A stretch of DNA of 64,000 nt, taken from NCBI RefSeq assembly GCF_000417875.1, contig NW_006920884.1, positions 306,257 through 370,256 of the forward strand, written 5' to 3'. This DNA comes from Pseudozyma flocculosa PF-1. Taxonomy: Eukaryota; Basidiomycota; Ustilaginomycetes; Ustilaginales; Ustilaginaceae. The notes below the pieces were generated by a model. It did not search any database, was not told the origin of the DNA, and saw only the letters and a program-made list of their open reading frames with translations. The stretch's first letter is position 1, and each line of letters opens with the position of its first letter. The position numbers and the translations under genes were made by a program. Positions 33,527 to 39,068 of this stretch are shown here, in pieces.

Positions 33527-34412
33527 GCGCGGCGCGGTAGACGATGATTTTCGTAGCGCGTTGGACGCGTCTTTTCCCGGGGCGGGTGGAGTCGGTTGGG
33601 TTCCCGGTTGGAGGTCATCGAGGTCCCTGGTGGATCCCGACCAAGATCGGGGCCTGATTGCCATGCCCAATCCCCATAGACGCCGTCGTCGGCTTTTACC
33701 CTCCCTGGTTCGCGTCTCGGTAGTCAAGCGGGAATAGCCCGCCTCTCTCCTTTTCTCGGATCTCTGTCTCTCTTCCTCTACATCCCTGGTGGATCGGGTT
33801 TCCATTTTGTCTTCTCTCTCCCCCCTCTTTCAATCTGCAACGAAAGCAACGGAGGCCGACGCACCAAAGGCCCAGGAGCGCTGTGCGCCCGGGCCAGTCG
33901 CCCCGCCTTTTCTCCTCTGCCCCACCACCGCGTCGCTTCTTCCTGCGTGCATCCGGCCGCGTGCTGGTCCTTCTTCTGCGGTGGGCGTCGTCGTAATTGG
34001 CCTGTCAGAATAAGGCACACCAAGTGACGTCGTGAGATTGCTTTTGTGGGCGTACAAGTGCTGTCAACGGCCTGTGCGTTGCGTGCGGGGAGCGGGCTCG
34101 AGCGTGACGGCTTGCCATGCTTTCTGGTGCGGTTCCTGATGCCAGTCTATGTATTGACGGTGGCCCTTACCCCCACACGAACGCTCTCGACAGGCGGGGA
34201 CATCGACGAGGCGCGGTCCAGGAACAAGCCAGCCTTACCTGGGACCCGGCTGACTTCTCTGCCCACTCTCTCGTCGCCCTGCCGCACCGCTCGCGACCCT
34301 TCGAACCTGTATGGCTTCTATGATTGCTCCGTCCCGCTGCTCTTTCGACGAGAATTGAGTGCTACAGCTCCTTCACGCACATCGACTGTCGACACCTCTA
34401 GACACCCCCCCG
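33527..34412. other. Convergent intergenic region
   Basis: 3' flanks of GH128 (plus) and the mitochondrial fusion gene (minus). I see no gene, repeat or structured element that I can support. Confidence 0.5.
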
Positions 34413-37400
34413 CTACGCATCGACGCTCTGCTCGCCCTGGCTACCGCCGGTGAAGCGCGCGACGCGCTGCCGGATGCCGTCCCAGAGCTCGGGCTTGCAG
34501 CCCATGGCGAGGAGCATGACGGCGGGCAGGTGGATGAGGCTGACCCAGAAGCACCACTTTGCGGCCTTCTGCGTGCCCTCGCTCCAGAAGCGCCAGGCGG
34601 CGTGGGCCATGGCGACGTTGGGCGGCAGGCTGAGCACGGCGTACGCCAGCGGGTGCACGATGCCGCTGTAGGGCAGCAGCACCGAGCAGACGGGGATCAT
34701 GGCCAGCGCGTACCGCAGCGACACGCGCCGGTTGAGCGCCGGATCCGTCACGGCCATCATGCGGTACCCACCTCGGGCGTACTCGGCGCGCAGCGTATGG
34801 GCGAGCGAGTTAAAATGCGGAAATTGCCACGCAAACAGCAGCGCCGCCAGCGCCCAGCCGCCCAGGTCGGACGCGTGGTGAAGCGTGCCCGTGCACGCCG
34901 CCCAGCCCATAAGCGGCGGCAGCGCTCCGACGACGGCGCCCACCCACGTGTTGGCGATGCTCATCCGCTTCATGGGCGTGTAGGTGAACGAGTAGAGGCC
35001 GATGTTGAGCGCGCCCAGGGCCGCCGTCAGCGGGTTAACCATGACGCCCAGCAGGCCGATGCCGCCGACCGCCGAGGCCGACGCAAACGAAAACGCGTGC
35101 AGCGGCGTCACGGCGCGGCTCGGCATGGGTCGCGCCCGGGTGCGCGCCATCTGGGCGTCGTAGGGCGCCTCGACCAGCTGGTTGAGGCTGTTGGCCGCCG
35201 CCGAGCACATGGCCATGCCCGCCGTCAGCGCCAGCAGCGTCACGACGGGCGAGCCGGACGCCACCGTCAGCGCGGGCGGACACAGCGCGTAGCCCGCCAT
35301 GCCCGTCAGCACGACGAGAAACGTCAGACGCGACTTGGACAGCTGCTTGTAGATCTTGGGCAGCGTCGCCGCCGACAGCGGCGGCACGGGCCGGTAACTT
35401 GTCATCGACAGGGGCGACGACGACGACGACGACAACGACTGCTGGATCGCGGTGCGAGACCGCGCGTCGACCACCGTCGGGTCGTCCGAGGCCGGCGCAA
35501 ACCTCGACACGTCCATGGGCAGCGCCGGCGGCGAAGCGTCGCCGCGCCGCCTCGCCGACGTCGAAAACATGCGCCGCGACGCGCCCGTCGGGTTGGTGGC
35601 AGTGCGGCCCGACGTGGGCACTCCGCGCGCCCCCGCACCCGCGCCGAGCCGGGTGCGCAGGGCGCGGTACTTGCTCCAGATGGCGTCGCCGTCGACGTAG
35701 CATCCCTTGAGCCAGCGAGTCACCTCGCCCACCTGGTCGGCGTTCCACTCGAAGCCGGTGCGCGAGTGGAGGACGCGGCGGTTGTCAAAGACGACGCACT
35801 CGCCCTCCTGCAGCTGCTTCTGGTAGCGGAACTCGGGGTCGAGCGTCAGATCGGCGAAGCGCTTGAGCGCCGCGTAGAAGCGCTCGCGGTCCTCGGCGGT
35901 GGCGAGATGCGGCGTCGGGTGGAGCGGCAGCGGCGACTGGAACGGCGGCGAGTAGTTGACCGCGCTCAGCCGGGGCATCGTCGAGCCGTGCAGCGGCGGG
36001 CCGGCGTGACCCTCGGTGTCGTGGGCCAGCTCAAAGGTGGGGTGCGTGAAGCGGTAGTGGCGCCCGCCGTGGACGTAGTGGAAGCCGACGGGCACGCGCG
36101 TCAGGATCTCCCACAGCGCGCGGTCCTCGTGCCACATGCGCTCGGCCACCTTGAAGCTGTCGACAAAGATGCTGGCGCCGCCCGTGACGCGGTTGCGCAG
36201 CATGTGGAGGAACTGGAAGCGCGGCGGGTTCTGGAAGTAGAGCAGGTCCATGTGGAGCCCGAGGTCGAGGTTGGTGTAGGCGATGTTGTCCGACGACGGC
36301 TTCGACTGGACGTCCCACAGCTCGCCGTAGAACGTGTGGCGGATCTCGCCCATGAGCGACGCCAGCTCGCGCAGCGTCGCCGCCTCGGGCCCGGCCTCGG
36401 TGCCCGTCTTGACCGTCGGGACGCCCGTAACGAACGCGAAGCCGTCGCGGATCGTCGCCTCAGTGAGCGCGTACAGCGCCTCGTCGCGCGCCTCTTCGAT
36501 CGCCGCCACGTCAATGCCCTCGGCGGCGTTGCCCGGCGGCCGGATGGCGTGGTAGGGGATCCGTGCCGGCCGTGCCATGGCCCCGAGCGCGAGGGCGATG
36601 CTCGCCTCGACCGGGTCCGCCTTGGCCTCGGCGCTCCACGGCTGCGACGAGAACTCGGTCAGGTCCTTGCCCGCCCACGTCTGCGGCACCGCCATCACGT
36701 CCATGTGCGTCTGGGCGTAGAGGTCCGGCAGGGCGTGATGCAGCAGGAAGGAGACGGGGAAGTCGGAGACGTGCGACTCGTCGGCCGCCGCGGGCTGCTG
36801 GAAGAGGGCGGTGAAGGCGTTGAAGACGGCGTGCTCCTTGGCGAATGTGACGCGGAGCACGTGCTCGCTGCTGCCGCCGCCGCCAGGGATCTCGCGCGTG
36901 GTGAGGATGGGCGGGTGTTGGGCGTCGAGCAGCGGCACGTCGAGCGGCACGTCGCTGGTGTGGAAGAGCTTCTGCTTGTTGCTGGCGTGCACGCTGCCCT
37001 TGGATTGACAGGCGTCGCGAAGCCATACGTGGTCAAAGTGGAACGGCGGCAGGCCTAGGCTCTCGGAGCGGATGGCCACGCTGGTCGGGTGGAGCTCGAT
37101 GGCGATATCGGTTTCCGGGATGGTCAGCGGCTCCGAAGACGCCTTCGACGAGCGGACCGCCGCCTGCGAGAGCGGCGCCGCGGTCCGCAGGCTGCGCAAC
37201 CCCACCGTGGAGATGGCCGACTGCCAGGATGGGCGAGGGACAGGCGAGCGGCTCTTGGCCTCGCGTTGCCGGCGGCGGCCCGCCGACAGGCTAGCCAGGC
37301 TTCGATGCAGTCCGACCCCCGCCATGCCGCGGGGTGCGGCTGACCAGACCGAAGCGGCGGCCGCCCGGGCCATCGAGGGAGCGGCTCGGAAGCGCACCGA

Positions 37401-38641
37401 GGCGCCCAGGGCCAGGACGGGCCACGCAGAGAGGACGCGGCCCTCGGCCGCCCAGCCCAGCGAGGCGGGGGCTCCGACGCTGGCCGACGCCGGCGGCTCT
37501 CCGGCGAGGTGTGCGGCCTCCTTGTTGGCCGCCTTGTTGGCGGCGGCGGCGTCGTCGTCGCGGGTCATGTAGTCGGCGATGGCGAGGTTGGCTGCCACGA
37601 TGGCGGCGATGCCAAACACGAGGAAGAGGCTGCGGCGCGTGGCGTCCCACTTGACGTTCTGCTCGATCTCGGTCTTGAGGTCCGAGAGGCTGATGGTGAA
37701 GCGGTTGTGGAGGTCCTGGATCTCCTGCTCGACGATGTTCTGCTCGTCCTTGGACTCGGCCTTGCGGTTGTTCATGTCGACCTGGATGTCGTGCTTGAGG
37801 CGCTCGACGTCCTCCTTCATCTTTTGCTCGAGCGCGTCGACCTCGCGCTGCAGCAGCGTCGTGATGCTGCGCAGCGCGGCCGCATCGTTGCGAGCGCGCA
37901 CCTGGACCTCGGTCTGCAGCTCCGACAGGGCGGCGCTGAAGAGGTACGCCTGGTTCTCGACGTCACCCTTGTTAAGGCAGGCCTGCGCCGTCTGACTGCC
38001 CCGCCGCGTGATGAGGAAGCGGGCATGCTCCATAATGGCCTGCGCCGGATCGTGCCGGCGCGAGATCTGGAGGGCCATCTCTTCCGCTACTCGACCGTCG
38101 ATCTCATCCACCGACATCGCACTGGCCTCGCCGTGGCTCTCGCGGGACGGCTCGGACCGTGGTGCAGATCCCTTTCGGAAGGCATCGGCCGTCCAGCCGC
38201 CCTCCTCTAGTCGCTTGACAAAGGCGTGGGTGTCGAAGGGCACCTCGAGGCTGCGGAGCGCCTGGGCAGGAGCGTGGAGCTCAAGCCTCGGATCATACTG
38301 GACATTGACCGTCGTGGCCCCCGTCGAGGTGTCGCTGCCACCAGCCCCTGATCCGTCTGCCTCGGTCGTGGCGTCGGTCGAGCTCGCGCGCTGCTCGGAC
38401 GCGGGCCCAGGCGAGGACTGCGACGAGCTATTGGGTTGCGAGCGCCTCCCCGCTGCTGTCCACGCAGTCTCGGGCGAAGTGGCAGTCTCTGCCTCTGGGG
38501 GCAGGATGGTGGTGTCGCTGCGCCCGCCGCTGAGGGCGTTGATCGCGCCCGCCGCGACCACTGTCGAGGCCTTCTTGTTCTGTGACTGTGCATGGTAGAA
38601 GCGCTGCTTGAGCAGATCCTCGTGCGACGAGCCAGCCAAGG

Positions 38642-38679
<38 letters not shown>

Positions 38680-39068
38680 GGTTGGGATGGCGCCTCTGCC
38701 TCGCTCGAAGAAGAGGCCTGCGGTGTCCCGGCTTCGCCCACGGCCGCATCTGAGCGAGGCTGATCTGGTGGCGGAGGATTGGAGCGAGTGTCGGTCACCC
38801 GCACAGAGTACGGCGCTGCGCCGGCGTCGCTCTGCTGTGCTTCAGACTTCTGCTTGGTCGGGGCATCCTCGAGAGAGGTGCTCGACTGCTGCTGCGCCGT
38901 CGAGGCGTGCCGCTGCCGCGGCGACGCAGTCCGCAGGTGTGTGCCCGGAAGCACGCTACGTGGTCGAGGCTGCCATGAGGTCGAAGACGAAGAGGGCAAG
39001 GGCCCGGCCAGCCGTAGGGCAGAGGAGACGACGGAAGCGCCGGTCGTCGATGAGCGATGGAGTCGCAT
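34413..39068 (-). CDS. Triple mitochondrial fusion: DUF1640/MCUR1-like + Aim17-like dioxygenase + COX10
   Basis: One uninterrupted frame of 1551 codons from ATG 39068 holds three complete proteins. Residues 1-270 are a presequence-like Arg/Ser start and a disordered part with a Gln run (about 38641-38684). Residues 278-503 are a DUF1640 (Fmp32/CCDC90/MCUR1) module: coiled coil, then one membrane segment (SLFLVFGIAAIVAANLAIADY). Residues 651-1142 are a gamma-butyrobetaine-dioxygenase-like enzyme with FDHVWLRDAC, iron ligands H939/D941 (LHMDLL) and H1101 (VLHSRTGF). Residues 1222-1541 are protoheme IX farnesyltransferase (COX10), with the N1293...D1304 prenyltransferase block NQLVEAPYDAQMARTRARP and multiple membrane spans. 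Junctions (504-640 and 1143-1221) contain no stop and no GTRAGT donor, and they resemble mitochondrial presequences. Homologues I know of are separate proteins. An assembly error cannot be excluded, but it would have to remove two stops in frame. Confidence 0.88.

What the first reader, a model, noticed from the sequence alone, without database searches (positions are those of the whole stretch)
34413..39068. Three mitochondrial proteins fused in one 1551-codon open frame
A DUF1640/MCUR1-like coiled-coil membrane protein, an Aim17-like 2-oxoglutarate dioxygenase and COX10 follow one another in the same frame, with no stop codon and no consensus intron at either junction. Each module is complete and keeps its key residues: the iron-binding HxD...H triad in the enzyme and the NQLVEAPYD-type prenyltransferase block in COX10. 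The homologues I know are encoded separately. A head-to-tail chain of three proteins of the same organelle could be a new multifunctional protein. It would couple haem A synthesis to an oxygen-dependent dioxygenase and an inner-membrane anchor.
Basis: partly seen in the sequence, partly recalled or inferred. Interest (0 to 1): 0.92.

Follow-up and report, generated by a model that had tools for sequence, protein, structure and literature searches.

The report
Three-in-one mitochondrial polyprotein of smut fungi
One gene in smut fungi encodes three separate mitochondrial proteins in a single chain, joined by stretches that look like the tags mitochondria normally cut off, so the cell probably makes one long protein and then cuts it into three.

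Summary
The 1551-codon frame at 34413-39068 (-) holds CCDC90/MCUR1-like, TauD/GBBH-like dioxygenase and COX10 modules. It is no local accident: 16 relatives (11 named, 5 unnamed) carry the same three modules in the same order. No second COX10 was found in this genome.

The reading as one standing multifunctional enzyme is probably wrong. Both junctions look like retained mitochondrial presequences: basic, acid-poor, fast-evolving, predicted disordered. They carry R-x-F-S/H-S/T sites close to the published optimum for the mitochondrial processing peptidase (MPP): 16 in junction 1 and 13 in junction 2 over 17 chains, none in seven other segments. The window's own junction 1 lacks it.

The doubled form RR-x-[FY]-[HSTA]-[ST] has 0 matches past residue 150 in 212 non-fused homologues. 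Related lineages have a COX10 chain and a dioxygenase chain with other partners and presequence-like joints.

Best reading: a tripartite precursor cut by MPP, like yeast Arg5,6. No cleavage was observed. The open frame alone is not significant at this GC content.

The parts
34413..39068 (-). Whole precursor ORF, 1551 aa, about 167 kDa
   Evidence: 16 three-module homologues
37428..39068 (-). Module 1 with its N-terminal extension and post-TM tail (residues 1-547)
37590..38237 (-). CCDC90/MCUR1-like (DUF1640) domain, residues 278-493
   Evidence: Pfam PF07798, E 1.6e-46
37563..37634 (-). Single transmembrane segment of module 1, residues 479-502
   Evidence: Kyte-Doolittle scan; 23 of its 24 positions are invariant or nearly so in A1
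37131..37427 (-). Junction 1, residues 548-646: presequence-like spacer before the dioxygenase
   Evidence: 17-chain mean 2.7% D+E, 15.4% K+R, 22% identity to the window; pLDDT under 50 for residues 500-636. In the window itself only the loose motif (HRSLAS), not the strict one
35697..36527 (-). 2-oxoglutarate dioxygenase domain (TauD/GBBH-like), residues 848-1124; iron triad H939, D941, H1101
   Evidence: Pfam PF02668, E 3.5e-49; triad invariant in 17
35502..35651 (-). Junction 2, residues 1140-1189: presequence-like spacer before COX10
   Evidence: 17-chain mean 4.7% D+E, 12.2% K+R, 34% identity; pLDDT under 50 for residues 1144-1192
35559..35576 (-). Predicted MPP site RRM|FST, residues 1165-1170, in junction 2
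   Evidence: R-x-F-[HS]-T in junction 2 of 12 of 17 chains; matches published P1'-P3' optimum FHT/FST with Arg at -2/-3 (PMC10450427)
34539..35270 (-). COX10 / heme O synthase (UbiA) domain, residues 1267-1510
   Evidence: Pfam PF01040, E 2e-53; TIGR01473 above cut-off
34359..37058 (+). Antisense 899-codon open frame (GTG start), judged a shadow of the coding strand
   Evidence: no Pfam family at E 0.01; coding-strand GC3 0.86-0.95 in the five segments measured

Best explanation
The gene encodes a tripartite mitochondrial polyprotein precursor. One mRNA gives one chain, whose N-terminal presequence starts import. The two junctions are the presequences that the dioxygenase and COX10 had as separate proteins, kept in frame after the genes fused. 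In the matrix MPP cuts the chain at these internal presequences (in the window best seen as RRM|FST at residues 1165-1170). This releases an inner-membrane CCDC90-like protein, a soluble 2-oxoglutarate dioxygenase and the multi-pass haem O synthase COX10, in 1:1:1 supply. Shown here: the architecture, its conservation, and the composition and motif placement of the junctions. Inferred: import as one chain, cleavage by MPP, and separate function of the products.
For: (1) 16 of the 19 hits of the whole-ORF search are three-module chains at 57-72% identity; 6 of the 11 named species were looked up and all are Ustilaginomycetes, of three orders. (2) The three-module COX10s group together (15 rows, 99/92) and so do their dioxygenases (15 rows, 85/99; below the tool's mark for firm support). 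(3) Junction composition is presequence-like (J1 15.4% K+R, 2.7% D+E; J2 12.2%, 4.7%), whereas another variable stretch of the same chains, residues 149-270, is net acidic (5.7%, 9.8%). (4) R-[not D,E,P]-F-[HSTA]-[ST] occurs 16 times in J1 (10 of 17 chains), 13 times in J2 (13 of 17) and 0 times in the seven other segments; 1000 shuffles of J1 and J2 give means of 0.29 and 0.21 hits and never more than 3. (5) RR-x-[FY]-[HSTA]-[ST] is internal in 15 of 16 three-module relatives; past residue 150 of 212 non-fused homologues (70,528 residues) it has 0 matches. (6) The motif is close to the engineered sites S10 RGGGRRAFHT and S10S RGGGRRAFST used for MPP cleavage in designed polyproteins (PMC10450427); P0001 reads GGRRGFST, P0007 GGRRSFST. 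(7) In 15 of 17 chains the last Met before the last (loose) J2 motif lies 67-137 residues upstream, inside the dioxygenase, and J1 has no Met in 2 of 17; a COX10 started separately would lack this presequence in those 15. (8) Two other chains, one with COX10 and one with the dioxygenase, have different partners, form their own clades (100/99, 100/100) and have presequence-like joints. (9) Junctions predicted disordered, modules folded. (10) No second COX10 found in this genome.
Against: No protein, RNA or N-terminus data. In the window's own J1 and in that of T. frezii (P0001) the strict motif is missing; P0001 lacks even the loose one. The loose motif is not specific: it also hits the dioxygenase module in 17 of 17 chains and module 1 in 16 of 17. 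The strict single-Arg motif is not wholly absent from controls: 8 hits past residue 150 in 8 of 212 homologues, six of them at residues 151-153. The motifs were written down after the junctions had been seen, though they follow published preferences. Violaceomyces (P0003) lacks the doubled-Arg form, and so do the 3 HMGL-dioxygenase chains. J1 lies C-terminal to a membrane segment whose far side in yeast Put7 may face the intermembrane space (PMC7519068), so for MPP to reach J1 the chain must be drawn into the matrix first. Met residues exist in J1 in 15 of 17 chains, so internal starts are not excluded there. Some relatives' gene models are faulty (P0015 truncated, P0016 with conserved blocks missing), and no DNA of the relatives was available. 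The structure model is of moderate quality (mean pLDDT 70.3, pTM 0.47).
Confidence: 0.77

Rival explanations
1. One standing multifunctional protein: the three modules stay joined, and the junctions are flexible linkers that couple haem A synthesis, the dioxygenase and a membrane anchor.
For: One frame, conserved order in 17 chains; catalytic residues kept; no cleavage data exist.
Against: Linkers are basic, acid-poor and hold MPP-like motifs found in none of the seven other segments. One TM and no second one seen before COX10 gives a topology conflict. Relatives' chains with other partners have similar joints.
Confidence: 0.12
2. Three closely packed genes with separate starts (own promoters or internal AUGs) whose frames merely run into each other.
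For: At this GC content each junction stretch is open in about half of dinucleotide shuffles; J1 contains a Met in 15 of 17 chains.
Against: Architecture kept in 17 chains; in 15 of 17 no Met lies between the dioxygenase and the last J2 motif; RGVPTSGRTATN in J2 is the same in the window, P0001 and P0002, which points to translation.
Confidence: 0.08
3. Assembly or gene-model artefact.
For: Some relatives' models are faulty (P0015, P0016); no DNA of the relatives was seen.
Against: The window ORF is read directly from DNA. The same architecture comes from several sources (ncbi, ena, lgn) and several genera.
Confidence: 0.02

Closest known systems
Arg5,6 of Saccharomyces cerevisiae (two arginine enzymes from one precursor cut by MPP)
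   Same: One nuclear ORF encoding separate mitochondrial proteins, cut internally by MPP (passages of PMC12585908 and PMC8835746; original paper Friedl 2020 not held).
   Different: Two enzymes of one pathway there; here three proteins, one anchored and one multi-pass in the inner membrane, with no shared pathway proven. Cleavage not shown here.
Rice RPS14-SDHB chimaeric precursor
   Same: Natural mitochondrial polyprotein said to be processed by MPP (statement in PMC10450427, passage).
   Different: Arose by relocation of rps14 into an intron of sdh2 (PMC1543663, start of abstract in the listing); two parts only.
Engineered MPP-cleaved polyproteins (S10/S10S linkers)
   Same: The 10-residue peptide RGGGRRAFHT between modules suffices for MPP cleavage, and its FST version was also used (PMC10450427). 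P0001 GGRRGFST and P0007 GGRRSFST differ from S10S at one position over these eight residues.
   Different: Designed, not natural; a single or doubled short site, whereas here the spacers are about 50-100 residues long.
COX10 / heme O synthase
   Same: Module 3 passes TIGR01473.
   Different: Found without the other modules in e.g. Tilletia (P0027, P0029-P0031).
Put6/Put7 (yeast MCUR1 homologues) and Fmp12/Aim17
   Same: Put6/Put7 belong to the DUF1640 family of module 1 (PMC7519068); Fmp12/Aim17 is a putative 2-oxoglutarate dioxygenase like module 2 (PMC5348986). Both are reported to affect mitochondrial proline use in yeast.
   Different: Separate genes in yeast; orthology of the modules to them was not tested.

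Membership tests
MPP-processed mitochondrial polyprotein (Arg5,6 type) | One ORF with two or more complete mitochondrial protein modules | tested here: met
MPP-processed mitochondrial polyprotein (Arg5,6 type) | Internal presequence-like segments with Arg -2/-3 sites between modules | tested here: met
   weak for junction 1 of the window and T. frezii
MPP-processed mitochondrial polyprotein (Arg5,6 type) | N-terminal presequence for import | tested here: inconclusive
   the stretch aligned with residues 1-148 averages 10.3% K+R and 7.2% D+E in the 16 of 17 chains that have it; no targeting predictor available
MPP-processed mitochondrial polyprotein (Arg5,6 type) | Cleavage at the internal sites in mitochondria | not testable with these tools
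   needs N-terminomics or import assay
COX10 / heme O synthase | TIGR01473 above cut-off | tested here: met
   243.7 bits against 210.3
COX10 / heme O synthase | Conserved UbiA block NQLVEAPYDAQM | tested here: met
   N1293, N1296-E1300, P1302-M1307 invariant in 17
CCDC90/MCUR1-like (DUF1640) | PF07798 coiled-coil domain followed by one TM | tested here: met
   158.8 bits; TM 479-502
Gamma-butyrobetaine dioxygenase (TIGR02409) | Equivalog score above cut-off | tested here: not met
   194.4 bits against 414.75, so not filed as BBOX
Trimethyllysine dioxygenase (TIGR02410) | Equivalog score above cut-off | tested here: not met
   152.9 bits against 268.3
TauD/GBBH-like Fe(II)/2OG dioxygenase | PF02668 and HxD...H triad | tested here: met
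   H939, D941, H1101 invariant in 17
Aim17/Fmp12 | Orthology to yeast Fmp12 | not tested

The most novel reading that the evidence does not exclude
Ustilaginomycotina have repeatedly turned N-terminal presequences into in-frame spacers, so that fused mitochondrial genes act as a eukaryotic substitute for an operon: CCDC90-dioxygenase-COX10 in Ustilaginomycetes, another protein with COX10 in Microstromatales, and HMGL with the dioxygenase in an unnamed lineage, all cut by MPP into fixed-ratio products. The three-part chain would then be, as far as I know, the first natural mitochondrial polyprotein with three products and the first carrying integral membrane proteins.
Probability: 0.5. Interest if true: 0.82.

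Novelty: new variant of a known kind. Interest (0 to 1): 0.72.

Why it matters
Few nuclear-encoded mitochondrial polyproteins appear in what I could read: Arg5,6 and rice RPS14-SDHB. A conserved three-part one that carries the only COX10 found in the genome would show that presequences can become spacers, and that internal MPP cleavage can be essential. Natural junctions that nearly match a peptide engineered in 2023 for mitochondrial polyproteins (PMC10450427) make the cleavage directly testable, and offer naturally selected sites for design. The fusion also puts an MCUR1-family protein, whose role is disputed (respiratory complex IV or proline metabolism; PMC7519068), on one precursor with haem O synthase and a dioxygenase. 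But partners differ between lineages, so a shared pathway should not be read off the fusion alone. It may also explain why single dioxygenases of Malassezia and Tilletia bear the name 'heme o synthase' or the like.

Tried and rejected
Open frame as proof of translation: rejected as weak, since 457 and 482 of 1000 shuffled junction stretches stay open. Loose motif R-x-[FYLHWMI]-[HSTA]-[ST]: dropped as a discriminator because it also hits module 1 in 16 of 17 chains and the dioxygenase in 17 of 17. MMU163 family (PF17119) as the name for the partner in Microstromatales: only a sub-threshold match in 1 of the 8 such chains scanned (P0018, E 0.0075; P0023 was not scanned), and PF17119 finds nothing in this genome (where the controls did not ring either), so 'MMU163-like' is a weak label. 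A protein search with that partner did find a separate gene here at C27, ORF 499 aa. The antisense 899-codon frame gave no family. Malassezia P0034 (LYRM-like + COX10; LYRM match below cut-off, no junction motif), Clydaea P0108, Coemansia P0123 and Darwinula P0100 were not counted as support nor as controls, since they may be gene-model fusions. Papers: no paper held all three of COX10, Ustilago and fusion; further searches gave nothing on this chain in the rows listed; the library lacks most subscription journals.

Rows dropped: P0015, P0016 and P0036 from both trees (truncated, faulty or fragment models); P0140 and P0179 from the dioxygenase tree (anchor pattern not found). The trees hold chosen rows, not all hits. 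In one search one row each fell out of the N- and C-terminal segments (under 10 residues). A1 holds the window and 16 of the 19 hits; A2 holds 32 sequences chosen by hand. Searches list the best 120 of 503 and 367 hits.

The odds did not change.
Full report
WHAT IS THERE. The minus-strand frame 34413-39068 runs 1551 codons from ATG to stop. Pfam places a CCDC90-like domain at 278-493, TauD at 848-1124 and UbiA at 1267-1510, all far above their cut-offs. The last module passes the NCBIfam heme O synthase model; the dioxygenase does not reach the equivalog cut-offs for gamma-butyrobetaine or trimethyllysine dioxygenase, so its substrate is unknown.

IS IT MORE THAN CHANCE. In this genome the open frame at the junctions says little: 457 of 1000 dinucleotide shuffles of codons 506-646 and 482 of 1000 of codons 1140-1235 stay open, since the junction DNA is 76-79% GC, while the whole frame stays open in 0 of 200. 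The comparative evidence is decisive. A search of about 5.8 billion proteins with the whole ORF (7992 candidates scored) gave 19 hits; 16 have all three domains, at 57-72% identity. Eleven are named: Thecaphora frezii (72%), Violaceomyces, Testicularia, two Sporisorium, two Ustilago, Moesziomyces, Pseudozyma, Melanopsichium and Kalmanozyma; five are unnamed. Six of the eleven were looked up and all are Ustilaginomycetes: Urocystidales, Violaceomycetales and Ustilaginales. Trees of chosen rows put the three-module COX10s together (15 rows, 99/92) and the three-module dioxygenases together (15 rows, 85/99, short of the tool's mark for firm support), which fits one origin.

OUTSIDE THE GROUP the modules are apart. 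Dioxygenase proteins without a COX10 domain are found in Malassezia, Tilletia, Exobasidium, Acaromyces and Ceraceosorus and COX10 proteins without the dioxygenase in Tilletia. Ceraceosorus and Sympodiomycopsis are Exobasidiomycetes. In this genome UbiA matches lie in two places only: this ORF and a second (L002) whose translation I read as COQ2 from recall of the family. So no second COX10 was found. A second CCDC90-like gene, split over several frames, lies at C19:296340-297041. Other TauD matches lie elsewhere.

THE JUNCTIONS. Junction 1 (residues 548-646) and junction 2 (1140-1189) are fast-evolving stretches between conserved modules: mean identity to the window 22% and 34%, against 72% and 82% for dioxygenase and COX10. 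They are basic and acid-poor: 15.4% K+R with 2.7% D+E, and 12.2% with 4.7%. Another variable stretch of the same chains, residues 149-270, is 5.7% K+R with 9.8% D+E, so this is not simply what variable stretches of this protein look like. AlphaFold2 (mean pLDDT 70.3, pTM 0.47) gives pLDDT under 50 for ORF residues 500-636 and, with small gaps, 1144-1226, while COX10 is mostly above 90 and the dioxygenase mostly 60-94 with dips to 36.

THE CLEAVAGE MOTIF. A published study of yeast MPP gives Arg at -2 or -3 and FHT or FST at P1'-P3' as preferred, and found that RGGGRRAFHT suffices to cut a polyprotein; it also used RGGGRRAFST (PMC10450427: passages, section 6). In the 17 chains R-[not D,E,P]-F-[HSTA]-[ST] occurs 16 times in junction 1 (10 of 17 chains), 13 times in junction 2 (13 of 17) and not once in the seven other segments. 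Shuffling the residues of each segment 1000 times gives means of 0.29 and 0.21 hits for the junctions and never more than 3. The exact optimum R-x-F-[HS]-T is in junction 2 of 12 of 17 chains and in junction 1 of 2 of 17, and nowhere else in the chains. As an outside control I took 212 fetched homologues not counted as fusions. Past residue 150 (70,528 residues) the doubled form RR-x-[FY]-[HSTA]-[ST] has 0 matches; the single-Arg form has 8, in 8 proteins, six of them at residues 151-153. In their first 150 residues the counts are 8 and 18. The doubled form is internal in 15 of 16 three-module relatives. These patterns and the 150-residue line were fixed after I had seen the junctions; the published preference is independent of that. 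A looser pattern is not specific and was not used as the case, except to place the last junction 2 motif.

NOT ALL OF IT FITS. The window's junction 1 has only the loose motif and T. frezii's has none. Violaceomyces lacks the doubled-Arg form. The best-supported site in the window is RRM|FST at 35559-35576.

SEPARATE STARTS. For COX10 to be started separately with the presequence seen, a Met is needed just before it. In 15 of 17 chains the nearest upstream Met is inside the dioxygenase, 67-137 residues before the last junction 2 motif; the exceptions are P0009 (15 residues) and P0014 (5). Junction 1 has no Met in P0008 and P0014, but has one or more in the other 15. So internal starts are unlikely for COX10 and not excluded for the dioxygenase.

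OTHER CHAINS WITH OTHER PARTNERS. Nine relatives (P0017-P0025; the three named ones, Sympodiomycopsis, Jaminaea and Parajaminaea, are Microstromatales) have COX10 behind a different protein, the same one in all nine. Eight of nine carry an internal RR-x-[FY]-[TAS]-T site in the joint. They form a clade apart (100/99). The partner is a separate gene in this genome, C27, ORF 499 aa. Three unnamed sequences (P0135, P0137, P0141) have an HMGL domain before the dioxygenase, with joints reading RRYASTS, RRHASTS and KRHASTS. These do not match the doubled form (0 of 3) and 2 of 3 match the loose one in the joint. They too are a clade apart (100/100) and lie next to Exobasidiomycete dioxygenases (94/97). 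In this genome HMGL-like and TauD matches do not overlap. Fusion therefore seems to have happened at least three times in relatives, with presequence-like joints.

HOW IT MOST LIKELY WORKS. The chain is imported as one precursor and cut by MPP at the internal presequences, giving three proteins. This also removes a topology problem. The scan finds one membrane segment at 479-502 and none between it and COX10. Yeast Put6/Put7, of the module 1 family, have their soluble N-terminal part in the matrix (PMC7519068), and UbiA-type enzymes start on the matrix side (recalled). In an uncut chain both cannot easily hold. How junction 1 itself reaches the matrix is open: the chain may be pulled in whole and module 1 inserted afterwards (inference).

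FUNCTIONAL LINK. In yeast, loss of the MCUR1 homologues Put6 or Put7 impairs proline use (PMC7519068, abstract), and loss of the dioxygenase Fmp12/Aim17 improves growth on proline (PMC5348986, abstract, discussion and a passage). An earlier claim of a complex IV role for the MCUR1 family is disputed in PMC7519068. Co-supply of modules 1 and 2 for proline oxidation, with COX10 for the respiratory chain that takes the electrons, is a possible reason for the fusion. It is conjecture, weakened by the different partners in other lineages.

NOVELTY. Known natural cases seen in the papers are Arg5,6 and rice RPS14-SDHB. Searches for this chain in the held library found nothing. Databases hold the proteins under COX10, dioxygenase or hypothetical names. 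I rate it a new variant of a known kind.

Noticed in passing
P0138, P0140, P0142, P0147, P0150 (Malassezia), P0129 (Ceraceosorus), P0148, P0149 (Tilletia): Dioxygenases with only a TauD domain listed are named 'heme o synthase', 'cox10-farnesyl transferase' or 'Protoheme IX farnesyltransferase' in public records, probably by transfer from the fused chain.
   Followed up: partly
P0017-P0025: COX10 of Microstromatales and unnamed kin sits behind a different protein, the same in all nine, with an RR-x-[FY]-[TAS]-T joint in 8 of 9; the partner is a separate gene on C27 here.
   Followed up: yes
P0135, P0137, P0141: HMGL-dioxygenase chains of an unnamed lineage, with presequence-like joints.
   Followed up: partly
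P0034: COX10 of Malassezia sp. CBS 17886 is annotated with a long N-terminal part bearing a sub-threshold LYRM2-like match; may be a gene-model fusion.
   Followed up: no
G000 C19:296340-297041 (L004-L006): A second CCDC90-like gene, split over several frames, lies elsewhere in the genome; possibly the partner of module 1, as Put6 and Put7 are partners in yeast (PMC7519068).
   Followed up: no
window 34359-37058 (+): 899-codon antisense open frame overlapping the ORF; no Pfam family, likely a shadow of high-GC3 coding DNA.
   Followed up: yes
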